Assembly (NCBI GenBank): GCA_027596195.1
Contig: JADGJG010000304.1
Span: forward strand, 1 to 24,676
DNA from: Podochytrium sp. JEL0797
Lineage: Eukaryota; Chytridiomycota; Chytridiomycetes; Chytridiales; Chytriomycetaceae
Length of the DNA: 24,676 bases
Reading direction: 5' to 3'
The notes beneath the pieces are model-generated. The model searched no databases. It worked only from the letters and a program-made list of their open reading frames with translations, and was not told where the DNA came from. The position numbers and the translations under genes were made by a program. Positions 942 to 24,676 of the stretch are shown here, piece after piece; within the stretch, counting starts at the first letter, position 1; the number at the start of each line of letters is the position of its first letter.

Positions 942-3900
942 TCAATTCAATGTCAATAAACACAAACTGTCTGACTGGTACCAACAACAAACTTTGTGGG
1001 AAACTCTCATATCCTTAACGTTCTTTTCCGCCATGTCAAATATACCAACATTCACGCCATCTCCCTTCTCCTGAACAATCCAACAACCCTTGACTTTGAG
1101 GTTCCCAGGCGACAAGCGTTTGTTTGCCTGATCCAAAACGTTGCCAAATGAAACACCACCTGCCCCTTTTTCGAATGTCCCCGTGCATTTCCCAGTTCCA
1201 ACAGACCAACATTTGATTGTTCCATCCAATGAGTTTGACACAATACTTTCCCCATCCGAACTCATGGCAACTTGATCAAATCCTGCCATATGTTTCGCAA
1301 ATATTGAGGTACAGGTTCCCTCCTTAACCGACGACAACCGGATGGAACCATAACTTGATCCCGAAACCACAGTCAACCCATCTGGAGAAAAGATGAACAC
1401 ACTCCATTTGTGTCACCTTCCATTGTTTGGCAGACCCATTCTCCATCCCCCCTCGACTGCCACACCATAAACTCTCCATCACTTGATCCAATCGCCACCG
1501 CTGTACCATCAAAAGAGATTCCAACTGCAGACACGTCCTTCCCACCACCCACATCAAACTTTTTGAGACATATCCCTGATGAAGCAGACCACACCCTGAC
1601 AGACCACACCTTGAACTGATCATCTGATCGCGATACAGAGACAACCCTAGTGCCATCAAAAGAGAGTTCAAAAGCTATGACGCAAGTGTCGGCAACAAGT
1701 AGTGTCTGTGTACATTTTCCAGTGGAAGTGGACCAAAGCTTTATGTCAGTATCATAATCTGAAGTGGCAACGATGGAACCATCCGAAGACATGGTGAATG
1801 TACTCAGCACTAACTCATCATGCAATTTGGAATCCTCATCATCACCACCACCACCACCTCCACCACCATATCCCAAAGTTGGCCAATTCCGTTTGCGGAT
1901 CCAGACACAAACAATGAACCGTTATCAGAACAGAAGGCAACTGCGTTCACGAAAGATTCCATACCACCAAATGTGTGGGTACACTTCCCAGTTACTGTGG
2001 ACCAGACCTTGATTGTCTGGTCTGCACGACTGCTTTGACGACCTGCAGTCACAACTTTCCCACCATCTCTGGAGATTGCAACAGAATTGACTTCCTTGTC
2101 ATGTTTCAATGTATGCAGGCACTTCCGTTCCTTCACAGACCATAACTTGACTGACTTGTCGTACCACCTCCCAGTATATACAACAATCGAGCCATCAAAT
2201 GAGATGCCCGTACAGTAATAATCAGGGCCTTCCTGTTCGTCGGTGCATTCCCCATTCTCCACAGACCACACCCTAAGAGGTTCTTCCCATGACCAAGATA
2301 CAAAAGTCTTTCCATCACCAGAAAGGACCACATAACCTGATTCAGTGTCAAATGTCCTCACGCACCCTCCATCCTTCCCATCCCCCACAGACCAAACTTT
2401 GACATCCTTCCTTGACCCCGAAACCACCGTTTTGCCATCCTCAGATATTGCCACTGAACGCACCCAATCAGTGTGATCAGAAAATGTTTTTACAGTGTAC
2501 TCCCCTCCTTCAAAAACCGACCACACCCTGACCGTTTCATCATACGATCCACACGACACCACCACGATCGTTCCATCCACCAAACTCACTGCTGCCACCG
2601 ACTCAACCTGACCTGTATGGCCCACCAGTGTAGATATACACTCGCCATTGGCAACAGACCACACCTTGATGGTGTTATCGTCTGAGCCAGATACCACGAT
2701 TTGGCCATTCAAACAGGCAGTCACGGAAGTAACACCGCGAGTGTGTCCGAAAAGAGGGGGAGGGCCCCACGTGGAAGCGGATCCAAGAGCCAGTTTGGCA
2801 GGCGCAAGGTCACCACCGTACGTTTTGAAATATTCAGTGCCTTGGGGAACTGACACCAACGCATGGTTGTACACTTGAAGAGGGTTCAACTGGAGTTGGG
2901 GTCTGAAGTTGAATGCCACAAACTTGAGGTCAATAGAATGGACTTGATGCGGTCAGTCTCGTCCCAGTTTCCACCTTCCAAACGAGTGTTAACCGACTCC
3001 ACCACTCTGAAAACATCATTGATCTTGTTGAGGAGAAGAAGGGCTTCCAAGTAAAAGGGGAGTTTGGAGAAACAGAACGTCTGAAGGGCCTCGACTAGTT
3101 TGTCGCGTTGATCAGGGTTTTGGTCAAAGGCATCGCCAAAATGATTGGCCCAGTAGCTGACAGTATAGCAGAGGGCACCAGATGGCCAGACACGTGGACC
3201 CTCGGATCCATTGAGCTGAGGTTGAGCCATGTTCTTGACAAGTTCGCCACCATCCTTTGTTTTCAAGTTGAGGAAAGACAGGCAGGCCAACGCCATGTCC
3301 AAGGAGGTCATTTTCAAGTCAATCTGGAGGAGTTGGGAAGATTGGTTGTGGCAACAGAAGGCAACCTCAGACTGGGAAGGAAGTTGTGTCTCGGAATTGC
3401 AACTGGTATGGCAACTGGTTTTGCAACTGGAATGGCACTTGATGTCTTCGAGGTACTCTGTCACAGTCTTGTGGATGAAGGAAATCTTGCTGTTGCCACT
3501 GGCAGAAGAATCACACTTCCAGAGGGATTGGACACTTCCCAGACTCTCCTCAACATCAAGGTCAATGTCTTCATGTGTTAAAACAGCAAGCTTTCCAATG
3601 GACTCCATAGAGATTGGCTCCTTGGCAACCAAACAGAACCCAAGAGAGATCTTGAGCCGAAGCACTGCCTCCTCATCCACAGTAACACCACCACCTTCCA
3701 CACGACGACATGCCGTCTGCAAGGCTCTGCAGTACAACTCTTGGAGGTCCAACGCAGCAGACTGCTCCAGTCGCAGAATCAAGGCATTATCTTCCTCAAT
3801 TCCACCACCTCTACCACCACCCACTACAACAACCCTGCGTAACGACTTGAGCTGAGCCTTCTTAGTGACATGGAGCTTGCCATCATCAACAGCAGCAATG

Positions 3901-4240
3901 TCTCCCAGCACCAGAACAATCCAGATAAACAGGCCCTTGGAAGAATCAGATAGTTTGCTGGCAAGACTTTGGAGTCTGGCCTCGTTGACATTGGGCAGCA
4001 GGTTAGAGAGACGGTCCACAGCGTAAGTCAGGATATCTTTCTTGTTCTTGTCACAATCAAGATCAAACTCCTGGATATTGTATCGAGTCTTGTCCTTGGA
4101 GTCAACTGGCCGGCTACTCACAAACAGACAAACAGGAACACTATCACCAAGACCATGGTAGGTTTTGATGATTCCGGAGGCACTTCAGAGGATGAAGCGA
4201 TTCTTGAACTCGCCGAGATTCACAAGGTGGAAGTGGAGTA
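942..4240 (-). pseudogene. Decayed NACHT-WD40 (NLR-type) receptor gene
   Basis: Minus-strand pieces in several frames join into the C-terminal two thirds of a fungal NACHT-WD40 receptor. At 4121-2886 lies the region after the NTPase: CLFVSSRPVD, SKGLFIWIVL, ISFIHKTVTEYL and CYTVSYWANHF are hallmarks of this family. Next comes PLQVYNHALV and then about 12 WD40 repeats (2919-942), with units such as VVSGSDDNTIKVWSV and a Cys/Trp-rich tail. Lesions: TGA at 4187-4185 before the SSRP motif; a frameshift at about 2930-3000; another in the GGT tract at about 1850-1870 inside a Gly-run linker; and a one-base shift at about 1390 inside GVC/FSPDG. No Walker A segment is seen upstream, so the 5' half is lost or displaced. 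Such proteins sense ligands through WD40 repeats and oligomerise through NACHT; this copy could not. Introns at the shifts are possible but none has convincing splice sites. Assembly errors in the repeat tract are the other explanation. Confidence 0.85.
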
Positions 4241-4245
4241 TTAGA

Positions 4246-4997
4246 TGGAGAAGATGCATCTGTGGGCACAGAGATTGGTGACGTGGAAACAATCTTTGAC
4301 ATTAGGGAGGGCGGTACGAGAGAGCAAGGATGATTAAATAAACGTAGTTTTATTCGCGTGAGTGGGAAGACGAAAATAATGAAAGTGAATGCGACGATTG
4401 ACAGCGGCGTGAAGTGTTCGCGGTATCATGAAGTCTTAAAGATTTTGTGTCGCTGGAGTAACAGTTACTTGGATTGTTTGATTGATGCTGTGGAGTTGTA
4501 CTTGGAACATTTGAAGGACGAGCACAACATTGGTAACTTCATTAATTTTTTGGTTACCCCGCGTGTGCTTGTGATCTAGCACCAACCAATATTCAATATT
4601 GGGGTGGAATTGAAAAAAAGTGAAAGGATTAACGATTTGAGAGGAATGGGGTCGAATGCTCTAGAAATGTGTAGAGAAGCCGCAAACGCGATATTTCAAT
4701 GCATCCGAGCGCGGCTCCAACTGTGCATGCGCGCGGGGGAGCGCGGGGGTGGGGGATGTGGGTTGAAAATTGCCTGCATACACGTGCGCAAAAATTCGCA
4801 GGCGTAAGAAATCGAGCATCTAGTGTGCACCACAAAGACGCGCGTGAGCAACAATTCTTTAGAGATATGACTGCGCACACCAAAGAGCTGCAACTGCTCA
4901 CCACCACACATCACATCTGCGCGGGCCCACTGAGTTGCGGACCACACGTTTGAAAATATAATTATTTGCGTTGATCCTAAAACACACTTTATTTTCA
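4246..4997. other. Non-coding stretch between the two WD40 remnants
   Basis: No gene is supported here. The first part (4340-4580) is open on the plus strand for 73 codons but resembles nothing. A hairpin repeat sits at 4580-4620. From 4700 to 4930 the DNA is rich in CpG and GTGCGC-like words, including a G-run at 4735-4765. This resembles in composition the 23890-24130 block at the other end of the window, although I could not establish a base-by-base match. Confidence 0.5.
4580..4620. repeat. Hairpin-bearing repeat, copy 2
   Basis: It contains the perfect 17-base interrupted palindrome CCAATATTCAATATTGG (4586-4602), set inside CACC...GGTG arms, then GAATTGAAAAAAAG. Layout and tail match the copy at 814-850, in the same orientation. 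Confidence 0.55.
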
Positions 4998-5820
4998 TCA
5001 TTTCTTGAACCCCAAAAAATCCCAACATTTAACTGGATATATAAATTGCAATGAAAACACCCTCCCGGAATCTTGTTCCCAGTAGCAAACATTGTCTGAA
5101 ATTCCCACACACCTCACGTTATTTGCAAAAAGTACACGAACGTCATCACCACCACCACCACCACCATTACTCTTCTGAATCCAATTGTCTTTGAACTCCC
5201 AATGAGACTGCCATTTGTTTGCTCCAGCCAAAACACTGCCAAATAAATCAGCATTCTGTTCGAAACGACGACGTTTCCCTGTTTTAACAGACCACGTTCC
5301 AACCAACCCATCCTCCCGTGATGCTGACACAAGACTTGAACCCTTTATGCTTATTGCCACCTGAGATACTGTCCCCATATACGCTTTAATTGTCCAGATG
5401 CATGTTCCATCAACAGAATCAACAGACCACAACCCTATATAGCCATCATCTGATCCTGCCACCAATTTCTTCCGATCTGGTGAAATGGCAACGGAACTCA
5501 CGCTTCCTGAGTCCCAATGTAATTTTTTCTCCTTCCCCGAGGTCCAAAGTTTGACCACCCCAAAAAGTGATCCTGACACCACTACTGCTGCATCAAAGGA
5601 CACGTCTACTGCCGAAGGCAAATCATCCCCCACATCTCCTACAGGAGAAAATGTATTGACACATTTTCCAGAATCAGTTTGCCACACCTTGACAGACTCA
5701 TCAAGTGATCCAGACACAGCCATTTTGCCATCATATGAGAGAGCAAAACAGCGAACTCGATCAGTGTTAGGACTCGAGTCTGAGGGTACGAGAGTAGGAG
5801 AGGACGAGAGAATACAAGAC
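4998..5820 (-). pseudogene. 5'-truncated WD40 receptor fragment
   Basis: A clean frame of 241 codons (5723-4998) carries the end of a WD40 protein, and the same frame stays open upstream to about 5820 (SPNTDRVRCFALSYDGK), giving four WD40 repeats with motifs such as AVSGSLDESVKVW and LVAGSDDGYIGLW. The C-terminal tail aligns with that of the neighbouring receptor remnant: GSVLAGANKW against GNVLDQANKR, then a Gly/Asp linker and NVCYWEQDS against KVCCWYQSD. There is no NACHT part, no P-loop and no convincing start codon or exon upstream, so I read it as the 3' remnant of a paralogue. The stop is at 5000-4998. A run of six Gly codons at about 5150 is a microsatellite. It could instead be a short free-standing WD40 gene. 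Confidence 0.7.
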
Positions 5821-5839
5821 CGGGACTTGTGCCGTTAGG

Positions 5840-6284: not shown

Positions 6285-6720
6285 AGATTTTGTGGAGAGA
6301 GAGGAAAAAAGGGAGAGAGAGAGTAAATTTGTGCAGAGCGAGAGCAAATAAGTAAATAGTGAGAGGAGAAAGGAGAGAGAGAGATTAAAATATTGGCGAG
6401 AGAGATGAAAAATGATGAGAGAGATAGGAATAATTAATTTTGTGCGAGTAGAAAACGAGAGAGAGAGAAAATCAATGACGATAGAAATGAAATCAGAGAC
6501 AGAGCAAATTAATTACAAGACAGATAAGAAATGAAGAGACAGAGGAAGAAATAACTAGAGATAGAAGAAAAGGGGTGAGTAAGTGAATTAGAATGTAGGG
6601 AATAATTAATGAGTAGAGAATGCAGGAGAGTTACTTACGTTGCACAGAGGTATTTATTCAAGAGAGCGGAGAAAAAAGAGAAAAGAGAAATGTGCATTAA
6701 AAATCAAATTAATTAAAAAT
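6285..6720. repeat. Purine-rich low-complexity tract (GAGA-type)
   Basis: For over 400 bases the plus strand is overwhelmingly A and G, with many (GA)n runs such as those at 6291-6325 and 6365-6385, broken by short AT-rich words. Such strand asymmetry suits a decayed microsatellite or a triplex-prone polypurine tract. No gene is seen in it. Confidence 0.8.
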
Positions 6721-7635
6721 GTTCAAAAAGTACAAATAGAGAGATTATCTACTTTCTCTCGAATCAAAGTAAAAATAGTGAAAAAAAAGCGTAAATTGTG
6801 AATTTGCCAATTTTTTATCTTTTTATTCCGTGATTCAAATAAAAATAAAGCGAAAATGGAAAAAAAGCAAATCCGATTTCCGAATAGCGGAAATCGAAGA
6901 ATCGAGGGAACATCAAAAAATCGATGACAAGCATCTTGCGTCAAATCTAAGAGCAGAAAGTCGATCATTAAGTAGCACATTGATTGATCAGGCACAAGGA
7001 AGCCAGACAGATGACGATCGACGACAATGACATGGCAAGATGGCATCCATCGGCGGAAGTCAACCGCCATCATCGCCATCAAGGCACATCTCTTGCCCAC
7101 TATTCGCCTAGGATGGTCTTGGGAGGTGCGAAGAACGGCATGGCATCCGATTAGAGCTGATGGGATGTGGTGGTCGATGGGGATGGGGCATGCACGAGGA
7201 CGAGTGATGATGGAATTTGAAAAATTTTCACCGCCGAAACGTTTCCTGTGACCCACGTATGCCCTGCCCATGGCCCGCGCCTCAGCAATCGAAAGAAGCC
7301 ACCACTTTCATTTCACTTCCTTCAGAGTTGGTCGGGAGAGTGGTTCCGAACTTGGGTGAAGCAGGGATTCTGATTTGACGAGCGATGTCGAACTGGGCAG
7401 AGACAGGGGTGTGCGCGCCGTCGGCCTGCCGAGTACCTGCGACCGAGAGTTGTGGCAAGTGACTCGGGGTCGTGACTCCAGGTTTCTCGCCATTGTTCTG
7501 TTTTTTTAGCCCGCCTCAGACTCTCCACAGTTCCACAGCATTTCCCGCGCCCCAAACCCTCCGGCCTAGGAAGTGTTCTATTGTCGAAATCGTATATCCA
7601 CGACTTGAGCCAAATCGAATAAACCTACTTATAAT
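6721..7635. other. Non-coding stretch, nothing recognised
   Basis: The minus strand is open for 182 codons (7271-6723), but the translation has no domain and ends in A/T-rich DNA giving Phe/Ile-rich residues. From about 7250 base composition shifts to higher G+C and short frames appear on both strands. I support no gene here. Confidence 0.35.
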
Positions 7636-8025
7636 CATGTCTCCCGCCTCCACAACCCCATTTTGGCACTGCGCACCCCCCCAGCCCCTCCTCCTAAGCC
7701 ATCCACCGTCTCGGCACTTATCAACTCATTGCGATGCATATTCGTTTGAAAGAGGGGAGGCACGTGAAGTGGTGGCAAGTGGTGGGCTCTTGCCGCAGAG
7801 GTTAGTGATACTGTTGTGGATATTCGGATTGCGGGGATGAAGTTGAGGGTTGGGGAGGCGTTGTGGCGCGGGTCGTGAATTCGATGGGTGTCGATTTGAG
7901 GGCGTCGAAAGGAGTGTTTAGGTCGAGTTGAGTTGGGTGGAGGGTGGAGGGGGTGGTGAGCTTATTGTTTCTATTTTAGCTTCAAGCTGCTCATCATTCA
8001 CTGGTTAGGTACGTCCAACGACACT

Positions 8026-8876
8026 GTTATCGCGGCGAATCCAACTTTATCGATCCTCCACGTCCCCACCCTCTCCACATCTCCATCACGTGTGGCATCC
8101 AAATCGCCAACTGTCGCGTTGCTTCAAAAGCTCGTGGCCAGTCTCAGCAAAAACCTATTCAATGAGCTCAACAGCAAATCGTCAATCCGGATTTATCCTC
8201 CTCCGCGAACTCGTCGCAGTCCTGCACGGCGGGTTGAACGACACCCATTTCCTATTTGTCCCCTTGATGAAGGCCTCCCTCGCGTCGGGAACTCCTTCCC
8301 CAGCCAGCACGAAAAAGGGACACAAACCCATCAACAACCTGATTCAAAGTCATCCGCCCGATCCCTTCCGCTGCAATCGGAACCGGCGCAATGGAAATCT
8401 CGATCCCACCCCTCAATCCCCACACGCAGCGGCCCACATTCTCGCCATCTACCACGCGGTTCTCGAACGCGTGAAAGTCGCGAACCTGGATATCCTTGAC
8501 TGGGAATGCTCCATCCTTGCACTCAGCACTCTCTTTGCGGAAACGTATAAGGATCTCCCCCGCGCAGGAAGTGGATGCTGTTGTGATTCCGTTGCTGATG
8601 GAAGACGGTACATGCGTTGAAGATGGTGTGTAATTCTCTGTTGTGTGGAACCGGGGATGGGCGTTGGACCTGGCAGCCAGGGATTTCGGAGGCAGATATG
8701 AATTTGTTTCTGCTTGGGTTGGAGGTGGTTGTGTTGGTAGCGAGTCTGCATTTAGCCGCGAGTGGGTGTGTTGGGGTGGGCGTTGAGTGAGTTTTCGGAG
8801 GCTGTGATGAAGGGGGCGGGAGCAGGGAAAATGTGCTTGTGGAGATAGTGAAGTTGTTGATGACGTTTAAGATATG
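8026..8876 (+). pseudogene. CAND1 (TIP120)-like HEAT-repeat protein, fragmented remnant
   Basis: Pieces in different plus-strand frames follow the order of CAND1, the cullin-associated exchange factor that swaps substrate receptors on SCF ligases. First come ALLQKLVASLSKNLFNEL and NSKSSI, then after a frameshift near 8185 SGFILLRELVAVLHGGL, matching the CAND1 part that reads NMLTELVNVLPGAL in human. Next is YHAVLERVKVANLDILD with ECSILALSTLFAETYKDLP (the IKRLKAADID region), a frame change to AQEVDAVVIPLLMED at about 8560, GISEADMNLFLLGL at about 8680 (human LISESDMHVSQM), and VLVEIVKLLM near 8850. The stretch between the first and second blocks is much shorter than in the family. Possible N-terminal scraps lie at 7700-7880 but are too weak to count. 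With at least three frame changes and internal loss, this cannot make CAND1. The comparison is from memory of the human protein. Confidence 0.62.
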
Positions 8877-8930
8877 AAATTACTCCGACTCTCAGCTGTA
8901 TTTTTATTTTTTTTCTTGATCCTTCAATCA

Positions 8931-11900
8931 ATGAATCATGGGCAAGGTGGTCCAAAGGCGGTCACTCGTATCGCATGCAAACACTGCACTGGAGAGTTTC
9001 TTCCAGATGATATCTCCCAAACGGGATACTGTCCGCGATGCCGTGAAGACCGACGGTAACTTAAACTCCTCCACAACCTTCCCAACGCAACAACATTAAG
9101 TTATGGAAAGTAGTCCCCAGAGTGCTGGTTTGTTGAGTACAGTGTCAGCAGGGTCTACAAACCAAACTACAGCGGTTTCTGCTGGTGGTAGTAGTAGGTG
9201 AGTTCTGTTTCCGTTTTCCTTTTTCTCTTCTCTCGTTTCTCTCTGTCTGAATCTTTGTTATCCTAGTGGTGACCAACAGCGCCAGCAGATATTCACTTCT
9301 GGAATCTCTCGCATGATTCCCCTCGCAACCCCCGTTCTGTCGCGACTGCAAGCAAGACCTGTTGTGGCTGCACCCATTCACGCCGCAGCCGTTCGCTCCG
9401 AGCGTCTCAAGGTATTCAGGCCTTACTCCACAGACCACAGCAACTTGTTTGTTGATCCTCTTGAGCAGCCAGGGCACTCCAGAGTTGTGGGAAGAAACTT
9501 GAAAACAACGGTCCATGCCGGTGGCGTCGCAGGTCCAGCCGCCATAAAGAACTTTCCGAACACAATGATGATTCAACTCTCTATCATTGAACCATCTCTG
9601 CTGAATGATTTGAACGGGAATCCTAACACATGCTGGCTTGTCGCAGAGCCCTTCTCGGAACGGTACAAAATTCTCTCTTTTTTCCTTCCTTGAAGTGCAG
9701 TTCCCTAAGTGTACTTCTTAAAACAGAGAATCGGTCCTCACTGCCGCTGGGTTCATCAGAAGGGCGATTGCGGCAAACAATGATCCAGAGTTGTTGGCAA
9801 GCTTAACGGCGGTGGCGATTGAGTACATCGATAAGCAAATGGGAGGGTTTATGGAACGACCGATGCGCATTTTTGTTCTGGGAAGATTTGCCGGGAAGCC
9901 GAAACCGGGGCATTCAAAGTTTTGTCCGGCATTGCTCATGGATATTGTTCCGTCCAACCCGGCACGCACCTTCTTTGTGTACGAACCAATGTCACCCGAT
10001 GGAATTGGAACTACCGTAACTATTTCGACGTTGAAAAAATTCGTGTACAGAGGATCGATGTTTGTGGGAGTTGTGAACCGAAACATGGTTGCTGGTGGGT
10101 TTTTTGTTTGTCGTTTTTGCGCAAAGTTTTCTAATGTGTACGCATCCGATAGGAAATTATCGAAACGTTGAGTCCATCGAATACGACTACTTAGACGATG
10201 GCACGGCAGAGAATCTTCCTGCCACCCCTGCCTCCCCGGCCACCACCGACGACGAGCCTTCCCCAAAAAGACCTCGCGTCGTTCAGCGCATTGTTTACAT
10301 GCCCATCTCTGACTCTACGAACTCAGATTTCAACTCCTCTGCCAGCTCGTCAACTACCCCCTCGGGAACCACCCTGGCAGCAACTGCCTCTGCCGCCACC
10401 ATCGTTGCCCCTCGCACCTCCCTGATCACGTCCACTCCATATTCTGGATCCACCAGACCGTCCGACTTCGTTTGGAAACCAGTCAATGACCTCAGCTTTG
10501 ATCTTGACGCTCCTCAGGATGGCAATGACGACGAGTTTCCCCATTCTACCACCATTGCAATGAATGGAAATAGGGATTCAGTGAGGTATTCTCCAGGCAA
10601 CTTTCTTGCCCCTCTGCCGTCGGATGGTTTTGCCACACGCCCAGCCCCCCCCTCCCCATCGCCTGTTCGCCCTGGAGCTTCTTCAACTCTTTCAGTCGTC
10701 AACGACGGCGTTCAAGCTTTGACTGCTAGTGCCACCACCGCCGCCGTTTTCTGCAGCCAAGCGTCACTCCACGCGTCCTTCCAACGACGTACAGATTCCA
10801 CAGAACGTAATACCGCGGAAGCGGAACCTGTTACCACCGAAGTGCCGCTTCCTCTTGAGCTGGTCGACTTGAGTATTTTCGAGAAGCATCGGGACAGGCT
10901 TGCCAAGGAAAATGGAGCTGCGGAGGCGGATTTAACAGGGCCCTTCCATCTTCGACGGGCGCACGTGTGGGCTTTCGAAGTGAAAGACTTGGCCATTAAG
11001 TACCACGACGCTTTTGTCAGCTGGGAAATGGAGTGTGACACGCTGGAGACCGAGAGGGAGTTTTTGAAGAGTCTGGTTCGTCGTCCACAGATCATTCAAG
11101 CGGGAACCCAGGATGGGGTTGTCGATTCGAAAGGGATTGTGTGGGGTGAGATGATGGTGCAGTTGCTTGGTGTGTACAGGGACAAGGGAACGCTGTTTGA
11201 TCATGGCTGTACTGGCCTGCGGCAGCACTTTAAGAAATCGAAGGCAAAGGCCAATCAAGATGCGTGGCGATTCGGACTTGTAAATATCACGCTTTTTACT
11301 CTCGGTTTTGCCGTCTTTTGCTGACATGAACGTTTTTTTCAAGTTTTTGGCGTATTTGGCCCTCCATTGGGGCCAAATCAAAGCTGTTGATGTGGCTGTG
11401 AATCAGGCAATCTATCTGTTTTGCCTGGGAGCTCCACTCAGTGCTTATACGGAAGAAATGCTGGTGGGGATGGATCCGTCGTCTGCGAAGATTCTGGAAT
11501 GGGATTGCACCAAGGCTGTCGACCTTGAAAATATGCTCCAATATGCTGAGAGTAATGGAATAGAAGTAAGTTCCTCTCGTTTCCTCCTTGTATTCCTGCA
11601 AACACTAACAACAACACCCCAGCTACCTGCAACCTGTCAAACAAGGCCAAATGGCTGGCGTGAATTCTACAAAATCTTTGAGCTGGTGACCTCTCGCACA
11701 AACCCCCTCAACAGTTGCAAGAAGGGATTTCAGAGAATCATGGGCCCCCACACTGAACTCTTGTGGCCTCACGTGAACGGGCTGTTTGAGGTTCCAAAGA
11801 CCATTCAACAAGTCTTGGATCAGTTTGACATGGAAGTGAAACCTCAGAATGTTGCGCAGCTACAGGTGTGGGACATGTTTTTCCACATCATTACATCATG

Positions 11901-12135
11901 GCCCCCCACCCTTTGGTGTGAAATGTTGCGCTGCTTGGTTGGATCTTGCATCATTCCTGTGCAATCAAAGATTCGGATTTACATTGCAACCGGAGCGAAC
12001 CGTGCGGAACCGAAGGTGGTTGTTGGAGTGTGTTTTGCAATGTTGACATTGCCGGAGATTGTTTCACAAGAAGAATTTGAACCGTTAATTGTTGGTTCGC
12101 TGACTGGGAGTACTGGAGGTTTCAACAAGGGATGA
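8931..12135 (+). CDS. HECT-type E3 ubiquitin ligase-like protein of a mobile element
   Basis: Seven exons give about 945 residues: 8931-9055, 9111-9197, 9267-9662, 9727-10094, 10153-11279, 11344-11565 and 11623-12135. All junctions are GT-AG and keep frame. The fifth intron (11280-11343) has CTGAC and the sixth (11566-11622) CACTAAC as branch-like sites; the sixth is 57 nt with no stop, so retention would also be in frame. The N-terminus has CKHC and CPRC pairs 14 residues apart, a zinc-ribbon or RING-like site. The middle (about residues 340-570) is Ser/Thr/Pro-rich and probably disordered. The last 330 residues fit a HECT domain: an N-lobe with YRDKGTLFD, FLAYLALHWGQIKAVDVAV and GMDPSSAKILEW, and a C-lobe with LRCLVGSCIIP and VCFAMLTLPEIVSQEEF, where Cys912 takes the place of the thioester cysteine (family TCF..L.LP). 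The first exon is the least certain; ATG at 9103 is another possible start in the same frame. The integrase gene starts 45 bp downstream. Confidence 0.72.
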
Positions 12136-12180
12136 GTTGTTTTATTTTCTGTTTTTGAAGTGGAGGAAAAAAAAATTGAA

Positions 12181-13961
12181 ATGGACGATCCCAACATTCT
12201 TGCGGCTTTGGACCAACATGTGGACGAAGACTTCCTTGACGATGATGACGAGTCTGGCACTGCTCTTCAAGAACCGGAGCCATCCGATACCCACGTCAGC
12301 GACTCCGTTCTTCAACAAAGCCTCCTCTTGCTCGGACGAGCTCGCCGCGCCATTGTCGAACATGCAACGGACCGGGACACATTGATTCAAACTCGAGAAT
12401 ACCTTCGCCAGATGCTCGCCTACATCACTGCCAACAGCCACAGATTGGGAGAACTCTTCCTAGCTTCCCTCATTCCGGAGATGGATCGCCATATTGAGTC
12501 TCTGGACATCTGCATTTCGAATGTTAGTGACGAGATCAAGAAGGCGTATTCGGGGCGAATCGACGTTGCGTTGCAGAGAACTGGCGGGAGGGGGCGTCCC
12601 CGCAAAGTCGTCAACACGCAGAAAGTGCTCGAGTTGCGACGATTGGGTGTCACGTGGACATTGATTGCAAGCCTTGCCCGCATGCATCGTGGATCTATTG
12701 CGTTGCAAATGAAGGCGGAGCGCGTTGTCGACCCCTACAATTGGACCGACATTTCCGACCAAGAACTCTTGATGCAAGTCCGGGAAATCATTAGTCGCTT
12801 TCCCAAGAGTGGGGCGGGCTTTGTTAAAAGTCACTTGGAGGAGGAGTACAAAACGCGAGTCAGTCGCAAACGTGTACGACACGCTGTCGGAGTTGCCGAT
12901 CCGATTGGGGTCTTCAATCGCCTTGTTCGCACTGTCGTTCGCCGAAAGTATTCTGTGGCAGGGCCTCATTCCTTGCAGCACATTGACGGAAACCACAAGC
13001 TGGTACGTTACAAGTTTGTGGTCCATGCAGGTTTGGATTTACTTCTGATTCTGAATTTCCTTTCAAGAACTGAACTCAAATATAATACATTAGGGATCGA
13101 CGGCTTTTCACACCTTGTCGTTTTTTGCAAGGTTTCAGACAACAACACGCCCGAAACGGTCAAGAATGCATTTCTTGGGGGTGTCGATCAGTATGGCTGG
13201 CCATCTCGTGTTCGGTGCGACAAAGGTAGTTATCTCATGAGATTGTCTTTGTTCTGTCCTAACATTTTGTTCCATTTTAAGGAGGAGAAAATGTTCTTGT
13301 CGCGGACCTCATGCTTCAACACCGTGGGTGTGGGCGCGCTTCGATCATTGCGGGCCGCTCAGTGCATAACCAACGAATCGAAAGATTCAATCTGGACCTT
13401 CGGAAGCACGTGTTGGACACGTTTTTGACACTCTTTTCCGAGCTGGAGGCTTCCAGTGCACTACATGTCTCTCTGAACTGGGAGCTCTGGGTTCTCCATC
13501 AAGTATTCCTCCCTCGGATCCAGAAACGACTTGATGATTATGTAGCTGCTTACAACAGTCATGGCAAGCGAATGCAGCAAGGGCTCTCTCCCAAGCAGTC
13601 GTTTGCGATTGGGAATATTTTGCGTGGAAGTCCTTGGGATGATGATACCCTAATTCAAACAGATGGGGTTGAGACATTTGGTGAAGACCCTTGCTCAAGA
13701 GCCCGTGCTGATCGAGTTCAAGCACAAGACGGGACAAACTTTATGCCAAACTCAAGAAAGTTCAGAGCCCGCGTTCGCCGCATTCAATGCCCTTTGACTG
13801 AAGCTCAGCTTGCTGAGTTTACTGAAGAGTGGGACAAACTCTTTCTTCAGGATGATGGAGCTGATGGAAAGAACATTTTCCTAAATTGCAAGGATTGGGT
13901 CAGGAACAAAATGGAATTGAATGATGTTGAAACAGAGAGTAGCGATGAGGAGAACGAATAA
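12181..13961 (+). CDS. DDE integrase/transposase, IS3-like eukaryotic type
   Basis: Three exons (12181-13030, 13094-13225, 13282-13961) encode 553 residues. The acidic N-terminus is followed by a helix-turn-helix region near residues 140-180 (GRGRPRK, then LELRRLGVTWTLIASLARMH). The rve-type core reads LQHIDGNHKL (D269), GIDGFSHLVVF, SRVRCDKGGENVLVA (D326) and VHNQRIERF (E361), with Arg368 seven residues after the Glu, as in IS3-group transposases. Spacing from the second Asp to Glu is 34 residues. The tail ends in an acidic TESSDEENE. The first intron (63 nt, donor GTTTGG) is in frame and free of stops, so both spliced and unspliced products are possible; splicing restores the conserved HAGIDG join. 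The second intron is needed to complete DKGGEN. All catalytic residues are present, so the enzyme could be active. Placement with the eukaryotic IS3-like (IS3EU) superfamily is from recollection of the family and is tentative. Confidence 0.85.
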
Positions 13962-14035
13962 ATTTTAGTACACCTCGGGCAATTGAAATTATTTGACAAC
14001 ATTTCACTCGTCCCCTCCACATGTTTTAAAATAAG

Positions 14036-14121
14036 ATTTTGCAAGATTGGTCGGTGAATCTTGTGACTGTTTTTCAAATAAGATTTTTCCAAGTCGGGCG
14101 GAATCTTGTACAAGATTGTGT
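14036..14121. repeat. CAAGATT/AATCTTG array with 16-bp perfect palindrome
   Basis: The heptamer CAAGATT occurs at 14042 and 14111 and its complement AATCTTG at 14057 and 14102. The last pair forms the perfect palindrome AATCTTGTACAAGATT (14102-14117). Two similar half-units of about 50 bases, each beginning ATAAGATTTT, make up the block. It sits about 80-160 bases after the integrase stop, a place where transposase binding sites of an element end would be expected, but I found no matching array near the 5' side. Confidence 0.6.
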
Positions 14122-14180
14122 GGAATGGCCAAAAACATTCATCCCCAAATTGGTGCAGTATTTGCGATAGATCTTTAGAA

Positions 14181-14272
14181 ATGAATTATTCTAATGTCTG
14201 TCGTCAATATGAAACAATATGAGGAAATGAAAAGTTCTAATGTCTGTTCTCGTTTTGAATCAATATGAGCGA
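14181..14272. repeat. 46-bp imperfect tandem duplication
   Basis: Two copies (14181-14226 and 14227-14272) share ATGAA...TTCTAATGTCTGT and later CAATATGAG. Function unknown. Confidence 0.6.
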
Positions 14273-14444
14273 GGCATTTAATTAAGGTTCGATGAGAACA
14301 CAAAAAAAGCCAGATATAAATCAAAAAGAACTTGTATTCCATGAACTCCAAAAAATGAACTCCAAAAAAATAACAGAAAATGAACAGAAAATGAGCAACA
14401 AAAACAAACACCACAAGCAACCAACACTACGAAAATCCAGTCTC

Positions 14445-16321
14445 CTAATCCTCTCTATAGTCCTCCAACCAGTCATCAGGCGATGGCTCGCGGAGCATTT
14501 CATCATCGTCCAATCCATCATCCGAATCGTCGTCATCCACATCCGAATCAACGTCATACTCAACCGCCTTGCCCTTGCCCTTGTGTTGCTGGCGCGGGTC
14601 CACAGTCACTTGGCTGTCCAGCGAACGATTTGTCAATTGGCTGTCCAAATCTTGCGAGCGGTTCTTGCCAGCAAACGAAGGCTTGAACTGGACGGTGGGC
14701 TGTTTTCGCATCGAAATCCAGCCAGAGGGACGAACTGGGCGCACGTATTCGAGAGGGACAGGTAGATCGGGAATCTCATCGTCTTCGTGAAACTTGAGCT
14801 TCTTGACTACTGAGCTTGAACCAGCAGATGAAGGTCCACCATGGCTTGAGGAGCTGGATTCGTTGGACGGGGAGCTGGATTTCCCTTGCGTGGCAGAGCT
14901 CGCCCGCTTGTCAGATGACGTGGGCTTCAACGACACATTGGACTTCTTGAGGGGCGTGAAGCCGGCACGGCTGGAGGATGGCGGTGTGGGTCTCAACTCA
15001 ATCTCGACAGAAGACTGGCTTGAACTCGAGGAAGCTTGCTGGGACTGGAGGTGGGTCGGACGCAACTGCAAATTCCCGAATCTGGCTACCGAGGTTTCGG
15101 GTTCTGGAGGGGGTTCATTCGGCAAGCAACGTCGACCGGACTCAACAAAGTCAGAGTATTGATCGGGTGGATACGCATTGACAACTGCAAGCATTGCCGA
15201 CATGTATGGCCAGAAGGACGAGTCCGAGAGCAGCTGACGACTGAGGATCATCCTTGTGAGTGTGAGCTGATTGATGTGGGGGGTTTCAGAAGTTAAATGC
15301 AATCCATGCGGTATATAATTGAGAAAAAATACCAAAATCAACGCGGTCAATTCGTTTTTCTCCATGTTGGACCGCGTGCTCTGGTCAGGGCGTGGGTCGA
15401 GTTTGTAGAGTTTACGCCCCAAGGCGGCAATGTTGGCGACAGGTAATTTGGCATGCTCAATCAACTATTTTTCACCGCAGTCAGTAGAGCCAAAAAAAAG
15501 AGGAGAGCGAAGAAGGAAGAGGGGAATGTGTCACCGTTTTCTTTGAATCACACTTGATTGTCGAAATATGACCAGACAAGGCATTGTTGGCGATCGTCAA
15601 ACCGGCAGCATTTGATTGGTCAGGGATGGATGCGAGCCCGTTTGCCTACACGAGAGATTTATTGAACAAAAGGGGCAGTGGAATAAACCCAATAAACGTA
15701 CCACAAGATATGCCTTAGCCTCGTCCAGAATATTGCCGACTTGATGCGGCTCTTCGTCAAGGTCCCCGAAAATGCCTCCGAACTTTCCGGTGAAATTGTC
15801 GACCGAGCAACACGACGCCCTGCCAAGAGTTTCGTAATAGAATTGACGAGCGTTCTGTAGTGCTTTTTTCTAATCGATGTGGTTAGCATCAAAAGCGAAA
15901 CTAGAGAGAGAGTAGTCATACCGACGTAAAGGCCTCACGCACAGCCTCAAGTTTTTGGATCTCGAATAGGTGGTTGATCGTGAGTGCCGTAGAGACAGTG
16001 AGGTCATGAATAGACATCTATTAACAGATGATCAAAAAAAGGTGCGAAAAACGAAGAAAACGACAAGGGGTGAAAGAGTGTGTCGTACCTGATGAGATCA
16101 CTGGCGGGAAGACTAAACGTTGCCAGCACCTTTGATCCGTGGGCACGCAGCGCTTCTTGATCGCTCCGCCTTTGAGAACGGACCGCCGGAGATTCAGATC
16201 CAGGAGCGATGCTCTCAAGCCGGATCGCGACAGGGTTTGGCGTTGGATGAGCGGGCAAAGGAGCGGCGGGTGGGGTTTGCATGGAAGCCATCATGCCTCT
16301 TTTGGGAGCCGGTGCAGACAT
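14445..16321 (-). CDS. Unrecognised multi-exon gene, disordered and acidic C-terminus
   Basis: Read on the minus strand, exons are 16321-16089, 16017-15922, 15869-15702, 15645-15535 and 15464-14445, about 540 residues. Introns after the second, third and fourth exons are GT-AG, 52, 56 and 70 nt, and keep phase; the first of these has GCTAACC as a branch-like site. The first junction is a problem: the best donor (GTACGA at 16088) leaves phase 2 while the following exon reads well from ATG at 16017, so either a weaker donor (GTGCTGG, 41 bases upstream) is used, one base is wrong, or the gene starts at 16017. Residues after the splices include STALTINHLFEIQKLEAVRE and FFLNYIPHGLHLTSETPHIN. The rest is Ser/Pro-rich and probably disordered, then strongly acidic (DSDVDDDDSDDGLDDDE). 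I recognise no domain. It converges on the integrase gene 483 bp away and could be an accessory gene of that element or of the next one. Confidence 0.6.
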
Positions 16322-16537
16322 GGACGATGGGTGAATTTCAATGCCATTTTCGAAAATGAAAAAAAGGTAACGAGTAAAAAAGCCGCGAGGGCCCAGTCCA
16401 AATTTTTCCAAAACAACCCGACAGCCCACCCACATGAATCATTATTTTATCAAACTCACATTTGTTTTATACTGAGAAATTCATAAAATAAATTAAGAAC
16501 ACAAAGCAAATCAGGAAAAAAAGTTGTTGCCGTCCTT
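16322..16537. other. Divergent spacer
   Basis: About 215 bases of A/T-rich DNA between the start of the minus-strand gene and the relic transposon copy. Promoters for both directions would have to lie here; no TATA box is clear. Confidence 0.4.
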
Positions 16538-17045
16538 GACAATTCACGCTTTCAGTCGCGCCTGCCTCGTACCAAATTTTTGGTAACACTGCACAATGCG
16601 GTCGCATTATTCTGATTTTTCCATTGCAGCAAATGCCCGTATTATTTGAGCAATCTGCATGTCACTTGTTTCTCTCTGAATATCCGTCAGAAACTCACAC
16701 GCGTCCTCCTGCAGTGTTGGAAAGAGAACAGCAGAACGCTCCATACTCTGAACCACACACGCATCTTCCTGCAGCGGTGGAAATCAAAGAGCAGAACCCT
16801 CCATTGCAGCAAATGACCACATTATTTGATCAATCTGTAGGACACGACCTTCCGTCTGGATCTCAGTCTGCTCACGCGCCTCTTTCTGCAGCGTTGGAAA
16901 CAATTGACAGTCCGCGACTCGTTTTGATCCCTGCTCTAACAGAGATGAAGGACGATCCACGCGTAAATAAAATAAAGAAATGGAACAAATATGAGTTCAT
17001 TGCTTGTCGTTGCACTTTGATTTCAAATTCAGAGAACAATTAATA
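16538..17045 (+). pseudogene. Internally deleted relic of the downstream transposase gene
   Basis: This block repeats the upstream and 5' region of the gene at 17281. GACAATTCACG (16538 and 17149), a TTTGGTAACAC block and CATTATTCTGAT recur in the same order, then CCATTGCAGCAAATG against CCATTGCAACAAATG at the full gene's start. The reading frame starts MQQMPVLFEQS and goes on with proline-rich segments repeated two or three times (cores TGCAGTGTTGGAA at about 16710, TGCAGCGGTGGAA at about 16770, TGCAGCGTTGGAA at about 16885). It then jumps to KIKKWNKYEFIA, which matches ESKKWNKYETLA encoded at 18572-18610 of the full gene, and soon stops at 17043. So the middle, about 1.3 kb in the full copy, is missing. 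It is most likely a non-autonomous derivative or an older copy into or beside which the full element came. Translation of the 139-codon frame is possible but unproven. Confidence 0.7.
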
Positions 17046-17280
17046 AATATTCAATCAATATCATCAAGTTTTATCATCTCTTAAATCCATTTGTTCCATT
17101 TTAGTGGAGCGGCGACGCGCTCGGTTGCAAATCTGTGAAAAAAGAGTCGACAATTCACGCGCCCCGTTTCAAGCGTCACGTTTCGCGCGTCTGTCTCGTT
17201 CCAACTATTTGGTAACACAGATCAAAGCAGTCTCATTATTCTGATCGTATAACCAACAGCAGATCTCTCCATTGCAACAA
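17046..17280 (+). promoter_or_regulatory. Upstream region of the transposase gene
   Basis: This 235-bp region precedes the full transposase gene. Its second half (17149-17280) matches 16538-16635 upstream of the relic, so the leader has been kept in both copies. That is why I mark it as the likely promoter/leader or element end. No TATA box is obvious. Confidence 0.4.
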
Positions 17281-20200
17281 ATGGCTGGATTATTCGAAAA
17301 AGTTGACGGAGGATTCAAATGCAGTCTTTGTCACGGGGTCCAGACAAATATTGATTTTTCAAAGATACAAAGGCACTTTCAAACTGATAATCATAAGAGG
17401 GCTGCTCTTTCTGCATGTCAGGCCCTTCTCTCTGGATCACAGCCTGAATGTCACGCGACGCCTCTCTCAGAATTTGAACCAATTGACAATGAGCCACAGT
17501 CTTCCCATGGCCCTGTACCCACTCCTTCTGATGTGGAGGAAAATGATTTGGGCGAAATATTCCGCGATTTGGATTTAGAATCAGAAGACAGCTTCACATC
17601 AAATGATTCTTTGCATTCAGACACTTCAGATGAAAATGATGTACCTTCTCCCAAATATCTCGAGCATGAATCAGAGGGGGGTGAAGGAAGCAATATTGGC
17701 AGTTTAAATGAAGGCTGGGATCATGATATTGACTCAAGAAAGTACAAATTTGGCAGTGGGGATTATGACCCATTTGATGGCGAGCTTGAGTACAATTTAT
17801 TAGAACTGTTTACAAAACTTGGGAACAGCATGACTTCAAGGGAGATGCAGAAAAGTATTCTTCATCTTTTCCCAGCAACGAACTTGGCTCCGAAATATGG
17901 TCGATTGCGAAATAAGCAAACTGAGCTCCGAGAATTACTTAATGTCAAGCCAGAAGTTTTGCATGTTAATGGAAAAGTGGTGCATTATATTCCTCTTGAC
18001 AATCCACTGAGGTTGCTTTTTTCCAACCCTTTGCTGCGCAATGAGCTGCATGTGATGCCAGAAATCAAGAAGAGGGTCCAATCTGAGCTGTACCATTCCA
18101 AAAAGTGGCTGGATGATTGCATAACTCCAATGATTCGTTTGGATCACGAAAATGCGGCAGGAGGTGAGCAGATAGTTTTCAATTTTGCATATTTTGGATT
18201 TGCCTCACATTTTCGATTTGATTATAGACAAATTCTATGACATATTTGCCGATGAAGTATATCAGATTGGGGATATCATTATGGCAATCATAACATTTGC
18301 CATTGAAGATGGTGTTGAGGTTGCTTATGGCCATCCATGTATTCTGACTGGCACAACCTTGACTGTTCTATCAGAGTTGGGTACTCTTGAGGTTACCACT
18401 GATTTTCTCCCATTTGATTTCAATCAAACGGAAAAAATCAACTTTGAATCTTCTGAGTTTTCGGATGCTTACATTGAAACATTTGACGATCCTTCAAAAT
18501 GGCGTGCCATCAGCAAAGGTCTCCGACTCTTTATGGTTCCTCTTACAGTGTGGAATGATGATACAAGTGGAAATGAATCAAAAAAGTGGAACAAGTATGA
18601 AACTTTGGCAACTACTCCAGCTGGCCTTCCCTTTGCAATGACTCAAGTTCAAGAAAATATCATGTTTTTTTGCACATCAAAGCATGCTTCAGCATTGGAA
18701 AGCTCTGTTGCTTTAGCAAAAAGTCTGCGGAAATTACGAAAGGGGGTGCAAGTATGGGATTGCAAACACCAAGAAGATGTCATAATTGTTGGTCAGTTTT
18801 CATGCCTCCTGATTTGATGAATTCTAAATTGTTGAGCAGCTGAAGTATTGCAAGTTTCATCAGACAACCCTGCTTCATCAGACATTGTTTCTCACACAGG
18901 GCTCAGTTCCAACACTCCTTGCCGCATTTGTGACATCAAATCACCTTCTGATCCTGATTCAATGGTACAATATCTGATGAGGACAACTGACAGTGACTGC
19001 AGCCTCTGGCCTGATTTTAAAAGCACCAAAAAGACTTTGAAGGACCTCATGGATGACTATACTCATAATCAAGCTACAAAAACGGAAACTCTGTTGAAAA
19101 TGAAGAGCCTGGGTCTCAAGGATAAATTCTTCATGAAAAAACTCAACAATCCCAGCAACACTCCAGGGATGAACCCACTAATGGGGGAAGAGGGGGAGGA
19201 ACCTTTCATTGTTGGGCCAAATGATACACCTCTTGAGTTACTGCATCTCATTCCTTTAGGAGAGCTAAAACATGGATGGCGTGCAACTATCGCAAAGTTA
19301 ACACCAAAAGAAAAACACATGCTGAAGTCACGTTTGGAAGGTGTTTGCCAAGATGGCCTTCTCACTTCAATCAATGGACATGCAATGGTATTTTTAACCC
19401 TATACATGCTCATTTATTAACCAAAATCCCAGGTGCAGCATGCAGGTTCTCTCAACGGAAAAGACTTTCGATCTCTTGCCCAAGTGGCTCCATTTGCCTT
19501 GCAAGGGCTGATTGAAGATGATGACCTTAAAATGTGGATTTCCTTGTCAAGGCTTACTGCTGTCCTGTATTCTTCAGAAGTCAAGGAGGGCTACACAGAC
19601 AATGTTAAAAATAGTTTGGAAGCATTTGTTATTGCAGCTGCAAATTCACAATACTTCTTGGCATTCTTAAAGCCAAAACTGCACCTTCTCTGCCACCTCC
19701 TCTATTTCATTGCTTTATATGGCCCCCTTCGTCTATGTGCTTCAGAGGCTTTTGAAGGATACAACAAAATAATACGGAAATCAATTTCACATACCAGTCG
19801 GCGTGATACATCCAAAGATGTTTGTGGGAAAATGGGGACATTCATTTGTTTCAACCATATCAGAGATGGTGGCTACTACAAACTAGATGGCTTGATGATA
19901 AATAACCCAATCTTGAAATCTCTCGGTCGGGACACCCCAACAGCAAGGAAAAACCAAACAATACGTGTCTCCAGTTTTGTGACATTTCAGGAAGGTGGTG
20001 CACACTACTTTCTACAAGTACACAAAATTAAGCAAGACGAGCTTGAGGGAATTATGTACACTCAGTCTGGAGAAGAATCTCTGGGATGCCCAGTTATCAA
20101 AAAAACAGCAGTTTCTATACAAATCAATTCAGCTTCAGTGCAGCTTATCAATGTTCAGCACTTGTGCAACCCTGGTTGCACCATTGGGCCTAAGACTGGC

Positions 20201-20686
20201 AAACCAGCTGATGGGAATATCTGCCATTCGCTGACTGTCTTGCATAATGGACAGCGGAAGTATTTGATCAACATCAATTCGTTCGGCACAAGAAAAATTT
20301 TGGCTGACATCATTGAGCCAGTTGCACCAGTGAACCAGGGAAAGATGGCTCAAACAATCAGAGACAATTATGTTGCTCTGCCAAAGAAAGGTCGTCCCAA
20401 GAAATCAGCAGAAAATGTTCCCAAACCTAAGAAAGGTGGACATAAGAAAGCAAAATCAAATGTACCAGCCCATGTTGTCTCATCACATCAGCGATCTTCT
20501 TCAGCTCCACAACGCAAACGCAGGAGAAATCAGTCAACTTCTGAATCAAGCCAAAATTCAGACTCAGAATCAAGCTCAGAAAATGTTCAACAATCACAAG
20601 GAGGATCAGATGATGAATATCGTGGATCTGATGATGACTTTCATCACACTGCACCACACCTTCGACACAGCACTCGGTTGAAATGA
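17281..20686 (+). CDS. Tnp2/Plavaka-like transposase-family protein
   Basis: Four exons (17281-18163, 18228-18791, 18840-19387, 19433-20686) encode 1082 residues; introns are 64, 48 and 45 nt, GT-AG and frame-keeping, the last with a TTAACC branch-like site. A C2H2-like finger lies near residues 12-40 (FKCSLCHG ... QRHFQTDNHKRA), followed by an acidic Ser-rich region. The core reads FMVPLTVWNDDTSGNESKKW, VQENIMFFCTSKHASALES, VQVWDCKHQEDVIIVG, NDTPLELLHLIPLGELKHGW, LNGKDFRSLAQVAPF, LAFLKPKLHLLCHLLYF and SEAFEGYNKIIRKSI. I recall these conserved blocks from a large family of transposase-like proteins in mushroom genomes, related to CACTA/Plavaka Tnp2. The C-terminus is basic with an AT-hook (PKKGRPKK) and then acidic Ser-rich repeats. 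The DD of the NDDTSGN block and His/Glu-rich later blocks are candidates for the RNase H-fold active site. No stop or frameshift is seen, so it may be active. I found no clear terminal inverted repeats. Confidence 0.8.
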
Positions 20687-21231
20687 GGTTGAGGGACACA
20701 ACCACAGAATATTTATTTCATTTCTGACAACAAAGATTAAATCAATTTGCAATCGCTCTTTTCAATTCTCCATGACCATAGGCAAGGTAATACTTTGACT
20801 TGCCATTTCTTTCCCATCCTATGTAAGACGACGGAAATTTCATATTAATTTGTCCATTCTAGGGAAGTGGGGAGCAGGTTCGATTCTCGGTGTTGGCGTT
20901 TTTAATTAGTGAGTAAGTGGCAAGCAAGTCACGTAAAATATTTCTCTTGTTTTAAGCTGTCAAAGATCTACTATTAATGTGAGATAGCTTTTTTCTGTAA
21001 ATATTACGAGACATCTCGAAAACATCTTGTGGCACATTCTTTCAAATAATCTTTCGCAGCATTGTGACTCAAGATGCCACAACATTTTTTCACCAAAATC
21101 TAAGGACAGATGCCATCCCCATATCCCAAAGTATTAACCCGGATTTATATCACGAATTATTTTCAATTGCCCGAGGTGTATTTCTTTTATTCTTAATTTT
21201 TTTTTTCCCTTTCCGAAAAAAGGCTGTAAAA
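20687..21231. other. Non-coding stretch after the transposase gene
   Basis: No gene is supported. GGCAAG and CTTGCC (about 20780-20805) form a small hairpin. At 20860-20888 a TAGGGAAGTGG word is followed at once by GGTTCGATTCT, resembling Pol III A and B boxes but far too close together for a tRNA. A T11 tract lies near 21200. Confidence 0.4.
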
Positions 21232-23841: not shown

Positions 23842-24571
23842 TTCCACACTTATAATATCGGACCTTTTGACGAATTTATCTACCATAGCCGAAAAGATCT
23901 AATACTCTAAGGGACACTCCACAGTGCGCACTAATTGAATTTTCGCGAGGGCTGTGCGCAGCTTGCACTGTTGGCGACACTCCCTTGTGCGCAGACGACA
24001 CTCCCTTGTGCGCAGACTCATTTCTGCTCGCCTGCCATTTTGGCTTGCCCGATTTTTTTTTTGTCCGCGAAATTTCGTGTGCCTGCACCCAGGCACCTCC
24101 CCCACCCACGCGCACCCACGCGCACCCACCCGCCCCCGACCTACTTTTTAATATTCGGCCATAAAATGAGTGAGAAAGGTTCGTTAATTTCTAAAGTTTT
24201 TTGAACATTTTTTTTGGCCTCAAAGAAAATTCGCCAACTCTGGAAACGAGTTCAGGTGCATTGAAATTACGCGTTTTCGACTTCTTTACATTTCTAGAGC
24301 AATTAAAAACCATGATTTGACTTGGTTTAATGAATGGGGATGGTGGTTGGGAATGGCCGGCTGTGTGTCTCGCCTTTCGTCGCACTGCAAGGTTTTTGAT
24401 CATTTGTTTATTTGTTCGATTCACACTCTCCCACGCTTCGATACGCTTCTCCTCATTGTGATCCATGACTCTAATGCTATTACCTACAAGAGCACGCTGA
24501 AATTTGAAGGAGTGGTTGCTACAAGTGAAAGAAGTGGTACAAGGAGCGGTTCCCTACAAGGCAAGGAGCGG
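23842..24571. other. Non-coding 3' stretch with G/C-rich repeats
   Basis: No gene is supported. It holds two 21-bp units (23975-24016), a CGCGCACCCA-type run (about 24105-24135), A/T-rich DNA, and a repeated AGGAGCGGTT word (24542 and 24564) close to the window end. Confidence 0.45.
23975..24016. repeat. 21-bp tandem repeat, two exact copies
   Basis: Units at 23975-23995 and 23996-24016 share CGACACTCCCTTGTGCGCAG plus one base. A diverged relative (GACACTCCACAGTGCGCAC) lies at about 23913, so the array was probably longer. Confidence 0.85.
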
Positions 24572-24666: not shown

Positions 24667-24676
24667 CTGTACAACA

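What the first reader, a model, noticed from the sequence alone, without database searches (positions are those of the whole stretch)
8931..13961. A transposon-like unit pairing a HECT-type ubiquitin ligase with a DDE integrase
Seen: a complete multi-exon frame ending in a HECT-like domain, with a candidate catalytic Cys912 in VCFAMLTLP, lies 45 bp ahead of an integrase with intact D269/D326/E361. Known: HECT C-lobes carry the thioester Cys in a TCF..L.LP context, and rve-type integrases use this triad. Inference: the two form one mobile element whose ligase is an accessory gene acting on a host or transposition factor. A ligase carried by a cut-and-paste element is unusual enough to check for repeated co-occurrence.
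Basis: partly seen in the sequence, partly recalled or inferred. Interest (0 to 1): 0.82.

Follow-up and report, generated by a model that had tools for sequence, protein, structure and literature searches.

The report
Chytrid integrase gene with HECT-like neighbour
In a chytrid fungus, an intact transposon-type integrase gene sits 45 bases after an intact gene ending in a ubiquitin-ligase-like (HECT) domain; the two probably travel as one mobile element, but the element's ends and further copies of the pair could not be shown.

Summary
Both genes are real. The window is a whole contig of the chytrid Podochytrium sp. JEL0797. The integrase (12181-13961, three exons, 553 aa) is a strong rva_4 (PF24764) integrase; D269/D326/E361 are invariant in 13 of 13 aligned sequences, the window's included. 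Alone it scores 15.2 bits against Pfam HECT (cut-off 23.9). A paralogue on contig C761 passes (36.1 bits, E 7.6e-9), and a two-sequence profile finds UBE3A C-lobes (E 6.6e-4) with the cysteines aligned.

One mobile unit is likely, not proven. The 45-bp gap leaves little room for a transposon end. Against it: one copy in the contigs held, no convincing terminal repeats, no integrase beside the C761 paralogue, and no HECT-like gene at 4 of 4 other rva_4 loci. A second transposon starts 9 bp after the integrase stop and hides the right side. Probably an IS3EU/GingerRoot-like transposon with an unusual accessory gene.

The parts
9103..12135 (+). HECT-like gene, six exons (9103-9197, 9267-9662, 9727-10094, 10153-11279, 11344-11565, 11623-12135), 906 aa; NCBI model HDU98_006490
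   Evidence: Splice sites and open frame; NCBI protein P0121 on a 24,676-bp contig
8931..9055 (+).
   Evidence: only sub-threshold zinc-ribbon matches
11344..12135 (+). C-terminal part of the HECT-like domain (last two exons) with the cysteine of VCFAMLTLP and C-terminus STGGFNKG (Phe fourth from the end)
   Evidence: Pfam HECT 15.2 bits, below cut-off (frame 11284-12135); aligned with the C761 paralogue and with canonical HECTs of the same genome; profile to UBE3A C-lobe E 6.6e-4
12136..12180 (+). 45-bp gap, in frame with both genes, 15 codons without a stop after the TGA
12181..13961 (+). rva_4 integrase gene, three exons (12181-13030, 13094-13225, 13282-13961), 553 aa, D269/D326/E361, weak HTH_21 upstream of the core
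   Evidence: PF24764 at 1.5e-20 and 5e-30 on two open frames, HTH_21 20.7 bits (cut-off 28.1); triad positions; triad invariant in 13 of 13 aligned sequences
7783..8862 (+). Left flank, not part of the unit: decayed mosaic, 8113-8862 a CAND1 fragment; similarity to other copies stops at 8862/8859, a possible left boundary of the unit
   Evidence: Copies on C38, C971 and C765; C38 frames carry TPR_CAND1 and TIP120
13971..21178 (.). Separate transposon, 9 bp after the integrase stop: perfect 18-bp terminal inverted repeats CACCTCGGGCAATTGAAA, TA on both sides
   Evidence: shortened relative on C947

Best explanation
The two genes are one two-gene transposon unit of the rva_4 integrase type, closest to eukaryotic IS3EU/GingerRoot elements. 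The integrase is the transposase: it would bind the element's ends through its N-terminal helix-turn-helix-like region and cut and rejoin DNA with its DDE site. The HECT-like protein is an accessory ubiquitin ligase carried with it; it would take ubiquitin on its C-lobe cysteine and pass it to a substrate, most plausibly the integrase itself or a host factor that limits transposition. Shown: two open genes, the DDE triad, the conserved HECT cysteine, spacing and orientation. Inferred: co-mobility, DNA binding, ligase activity and substrate. The unit's right side was overrun by another transposon and its ends are not identified.
For: The integrase is strong, and its start and end are conserved with P0001 of the same strain, 57-62% identical. 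Had an integrase element inserted after an unrelated HECT gene, its left end, promoter and leader would have to fit into 45 bp; the HECT frame is open up to a C-terminus shared with its paralogue. HECT identity: the C761 paralogue is 29-33% identical in the aligned part, keeps an intron at the same place and phase, the cysteine (GTCHSTLSLP) and the Phe fourth from the end, and passes the HECT cut-off; 20 of 20 solved sequences matched at E up to 10 are HECT ligases by name. Both genes are open while the left flank is decayed. Left-flank similarity to other loci stops at 8862, 68 or 240 bp before the two possible HECT starts. Fungal IS3EU elements are known to carry other enzyme genes, TET/JBP and alpha-kinase (PMC12730594, abstract and passages).
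Against: One DNA-level copy of each gene in the genome held (counts are lower bounds). C761 has a HECT-like gene and no convincing integrase match in its contig (best tblastn E 0.29, 0.93 and 0.74). 4 of 4 other rva_4 loci lack a HECT-like frame (C113, 9,000 of 87,358 bases read, and three contigs of 3.4-4.2 kb). Terminal repeats with 5-6 bp duplications: 9 of 10 settings lie within shuffles; the tenth (8263/15761, 20 of 32 with 5 bp, reached by 0 of 20 shuffles) lies inside the CAND1 fragment and the second transposon and I reject it. HECT is below cut-off for this protein itself. Two protein searches found no relative of the HECT-like protein but itself (that search needs shared 5-residue words and did not show the C761 gene either).
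Confidence: 0.52

Rival explanations
1. Chance neighbours. The HECT-like gene belongs to a small chytrid gene family (this copy and C761), and an rva_4 transposon landed just after it; loss of its left end brought the two within 45 bp.
For: C761 has the HECT-like gene without a convincing integrase match; 4 of 4 other rva_4 loci lack a HECT-like frame; the region is rich in insertions, pseudogenes and repeats.
Against: 45 bp is short for a transposon end plus leader, and both coding ends facing the gap are conserved, so a loss would have had to stop exactly between them.
Confidence: 0.3
2. A domesticated pair: a former transposon lost its ends and both genes are kept by the host for some function.
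For: One copy, no detectable ends, both frames open, catalytic residues kept.
Against: Nothing shows conservation of the pair at a fixed place: no related genome could be searched. The same strain has at least two further integrases, 55-59% identical to this one, as expected of a transposon family.
Confidence: 0.12
3. One protein in two parts: the TGA is read through to make a HECT-integrase fusion, or both are made from one message.
For: Same frame, one TGA, 15 open codons between the genes.
Against: Chance gives a shared frame one time in three; the Phe fourth from the HECT C-terminus is kept in both paralogues, as expected of a real end; P0001 starts with its own Met at the matching place.
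Confidence: 0.06

Closest known systems
[quoted passage not shown]
   Same: DDE core resembling prokaryotic IS481/IS3 transposases (NCBIfam IS481 9.7e-10 for P0001 and 6.7e-11 for P0002, IS3 5e-7 for P0003); no HHCC domain seen; fungal members carry accessory enzyme genes (PMC12730594, passages)
   Different: TA..TA ends and 6-bp duplications, stated for IS3EU in PMC10045372 (passages), were not found here; no HECT gene is mentioned for IS3EU in the passages seen; no reference IS3EU protein was at hand for a tree
HECT E3 ubiquitin ligases (UBE3A/E6AP type)
   Same: C-lobe pattern and aligned cysteine; Phe fourth from the C-terminus (recalled as a HECT feature)
   Different: Very divergent (15 bits); N-lobe recognised only by eye (DxxG...E); a long N-terminal region without Pfam match
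Helitron-encoded deubiquitinases (VTD, OTU) and the RING ligase part of RAG1
   Same: Ubiquitin-system enzymes carried by or fused to eukaryotic transposon genes (PMC9741609, passages; PMC10799480, passage)
   Different: Proteases or RING, not a HECT ligase; not a separate gene beside an rva_4 integrase

Membership tests
IS3EU/GingerRoot DNA transposons | DDE integrase-like core | tested here: met
   PF24764; triad in 13 of 13 aligned sequences
IS3EU/GingerRoot DNA transposons | Affinity to prokaryotic IS3/IS481 transposases | tested here: met
   Matches of the close relatives P0001, P0002, P0003, all far under those models' own cut-offs (224 and 160 bits); the window's protein itself was not in that call
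IS3EU/GingerRoot DNA transposons | No HHCC zinc domain upstream of the core | tested here: inconclusive
   Only weak matches found there, among them HTH_21 20.7 bits (cut-off 28.1) and an AT-hook
IS3EU/GingerRoot DNA transposons | TA..TA termini with 6-bp target duplication | tested here: inconclusive
   None above shuffles with 6-bp duplications; right side interrupted by another transposon
IS3EU/GingerRoot DNA transposons | Tree placement with reference IS3EU transposases | not tested
   No sequence named IS3EU was at hand
HECT E3 ligase | Significant HECT profile match of this protein itself | tested here: not met
   15.2, 12.6 and 15.0 bits against cut-off 23.9
HECT E3 ligase | Significant HECT match through a homologue or profile | tested here: met
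   C761 32.3 bits (one frame) and 36.1 bits, E 7.6e-9 (two exons joined); two-sequence profile to UBE3A E 6.6e-4
HECT E3 ligase | Thioester cysteine in the C-lobe | tested here: met
   The cysteine aligns with that of UBE3A and of three canonical HECTs of this genome, L001, L003, L005
HECT E3 ligase | HECT fold | tested here: inconclusive
   The one prediction made had mean pLDDT 39; a second was not accepted
HECT E3 ligase | Ubiquitin transfer | not testable with these tools
   Needs biochemistry

The most novel reading that the evidence does not exclude
A eukaryotic cut-and-paste transposon lineage in chytrids encodes its own HECT ubiquitin ligase next to its integrase, and uses it to control the integrase's lifetime or to remove a host restriction factor.
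Probability: 0.45. Interest if true: 0.65.

Novelty: new variant of a known kind. Interest (0 to 1): 0.42.

Why it matters
Transposon-borne deubiquitinases and a RING ligase linked to a transposase are in print. No listing shown by my term searches names a HECT ligase carried by a DDE transposon (only the top rows of each are shown, the library lacks most subscription journals, and the GingerRoot paper is not held). If the pair recurs, it gives a testable case of a transposon steering turnover of its own transposase or of host defence.

Tried and rejected
Element ends. Inverted repeats with 4-6 bp duplications between 6500-9103 and 13962-16500, inverted repeats without duplication (best 19 of 24 at 7011-7013/15598-15600; 7 of 40 shuffles also reach 19), right end after the second transposon, repeats starting at the 8862 boundary, and shuffle controls for ten settings. 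In one search, nine settings lie within shuffles (2 to 14 of 20 reach the observed score). One does not: 8263/15761, 20 of 32 with a 5-bp duplication, 0 of 20. I reject it as one of ten settings whose arms lie inside the CAND1 fragment and inside the second transposon. The 7012/15599 pair (TG..CA) is at chance and its right arm is inside the second transposon.

Wider co-occurrence. Viral-contig scans with P0001, A1, A2 and A4 gave no confirmed relative. Genome contigs with A1 gave three short contigs binned as a Cycloclasticus MAG of a sponge (that the DNA is the sponge's is my inference). Protein searches with the HECT-like protein found only itself. The contigs of P0001 (5,011 bp), P0002 (7,940 bp) and P0003 (7,968 bp) could not be read; P0001's gene is not in the genome held (only the window matches, at 57-62%), so copy numbers there are lower bounds.

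A CAND1-HECT association. C761:1917-1999 repeats C761:2959-3041 exactly, next to a CAND1 fragment shared with C971. I first took this as a second CAND1-HECT junction; I do not count it, since an exact 83-bp repeat and a 55-bp overlap at a contig end could be an assembly join.

While drafting I took 8931 as unsupported because tried only some acceptors; one search shows an in-frame AG at 9109-9110, and the report is mended.

Structure. The one model was useless.
Full report
Source. A protein encoded by the window, P0121, is NCBI HDU98_006490 of Podochytrium sp. JEL0797 on a contig of 24,676 bp, the window's own length; the genus lies in Chytriomycetaceae, Chytridiomycota. The genome held is 24.4 Mb in 995 contigs and is incomplete for this question: two integrases of the same strain, P0001 and P0002, lie on contigs of 5,011 and 7,940 bp, and a search with P0001 returns only the window, at 57-62% identity.

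The integrase. Three exons give 553 aa with canonical introns. Two open frames match PF24764 rva_4 at 1.5e-20 and 5e-30. A search found 157 proteins at E up to 0.001 among the 7,994 candidates scored, 120 listed; the best three are chytrid (59, 55 and 46% identity), and named others include fish, corals and molluscs. I aligned 12 of the 157 with the window's protein; D269, D326 and E361 are invariant in all 13. P0001, P0002 and P0003 match prokaryotic IS481 or IS3 transposase models significantly, far under those models' cut-offs. In PMC10045372 (part 1 of 5 of the text, and passages) IS3EU and GingerRoot are eukaryotic transposons near these, with TA..TA ends, for GingerRoot sometimes TG..CA, and usually 6-bp duplications. 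Placement there is likely and was not tested by a tree.

The HECT-like gene. Six exons from 9103 give 906 aa; a further exon from 8931 can be joined in frame to give 945 aa. On its own the HECT match is weak: 15.2, 12.6 and 15.0 bits for three versions, cut-off 23.9. Apart from two short fragments, one relative was found in the genome held, on C761 (E 4.7e-22, 32%). It scores 32.3 bits on one frame and 36.1 bits (E 7.6e-9) with two exons joined. It keeps the cysteine, the Phe fourth from the end, a DxxG...E stretch like that of HECT N-lobes (by eye), and an intron at the same position and phase. A profile of the two matched 20 solved sequences at E up to 10, 20 of 20 HECT ligases by name, best UBE3A at 6.6e-4, cysteines aligned, over the C-lobe only in that match. 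The longer profile gave 16 at E up to 1: 15 HECT, and one RNA-editing protein matched in another part. That this cysteine carries the thioester, and that the Phe matters in HECTs, is recalled. The one structure prediction failed (mean pLDDT 39).

The pair. The genes are on one strand, 45 bp apart, in one frame. This leaves little room for a transposon end between them. Each gene has one DNA-level match in the genome held, itself. C761 holds no convincing integrase match (best E 0.29, 0.93 and 0.74). Of four other rva_4 loci examined, 4 of 4 lack a frame matching the HECT-like profile: C113, itself a weak rva_4 match (25.1 bits, 29.1 with its neighbours, cut-off 26) with 9,000 of 87,358 bases read, and three contigs of 3.4-4.2 kb, on which nine frames were also scanned with Pfam, none HECT. 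Short contigs make this a weak test. A fixed association across the whole family is not supported; one within the chytrid lineage stays open.

Surroundings. On the left, 7783-8862 is a decayed mosaic; 8113-8862 is a fragment of CAND1, whose copy on C38 carries TPR_CAND1 and TIP120. Similarity to C38 and C971 ends at 8862 and 8859, a possible left boundary. On the right, 9 bp after the integrase stop, a 7.2-kb element begins with an 18-bp repeat found perfectly inverted at 21161-21178, with TA on both sides; C947 holds a shortened relative. Its CAC...GTG ends suggest a CACTA-type element (recalled); six of its frames gave no Pfam match over the cut-off. This insertion may be why no right end is found near the integrase. 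End searches on both placings of the right end gave nothing that I accept; one of ten settings exceeded its 20 shuffles and is told in Tried and rejected.

Verdict. I favour one transposon unit with an accessory HECT-like ligase (0.52), over chance neighbours (0.30), a domesticated pair (0.12) and a readthrough fusion (0.06). Co-mobility, ligase activity and substrate are inference.

Noticed in passing
window 13971-21178: A 7.2-kb element with perfect 18-bp terminal inverted repeats (CAC...GTG) and TA on both sides, 9 bp after the integrase stop; a relative on C947 has no match to window segments around 14089-16193 and 16893-20715.
   Followed up: partly
window 7783-8862; C971:642-2076; C765:3546-4005: Pseudogene mosaic with a CAND1 fragment, shared with C971 and, in its first part, with C765; C38 carries the CAND1 gene.
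   Followed up: partly
C761:1917-1999 and 2959-3041; C971:1-55: An exact 83-bp repeat links the C761 HECT-like gene and a CAND1 pseudogene; C971 starts with 55 bp of it, so recombination or an assembly join is possible.
   Followed up: no
window 1810-5834 (minus strand): Two frames rich in WD40 repeats on either side of a long frame without a Pfam match at E up to 0.01; perhaps one large WD40-repeat gene or two.
   Followed up: no
window 23898-24676: The end of the contig carries interspersed repeats: 29 rows listed for the right flank, the window itself included; the other 28 fall here.
   Followed up: no
window 21696-21914 and C761:5438-5649: About 220 bp, 73-74% identical, lie right of the second transposon here and upstream of the C761 HECT-like gene; nature unknown.
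   Followed up: no
L030, L031, L032 (LWTN01000118, 139, 127): Animal-type rva_4 integrases on short contigs binned as a bacterial sponge-symbiont MAG; probably host sequence.
   Followed up: partly
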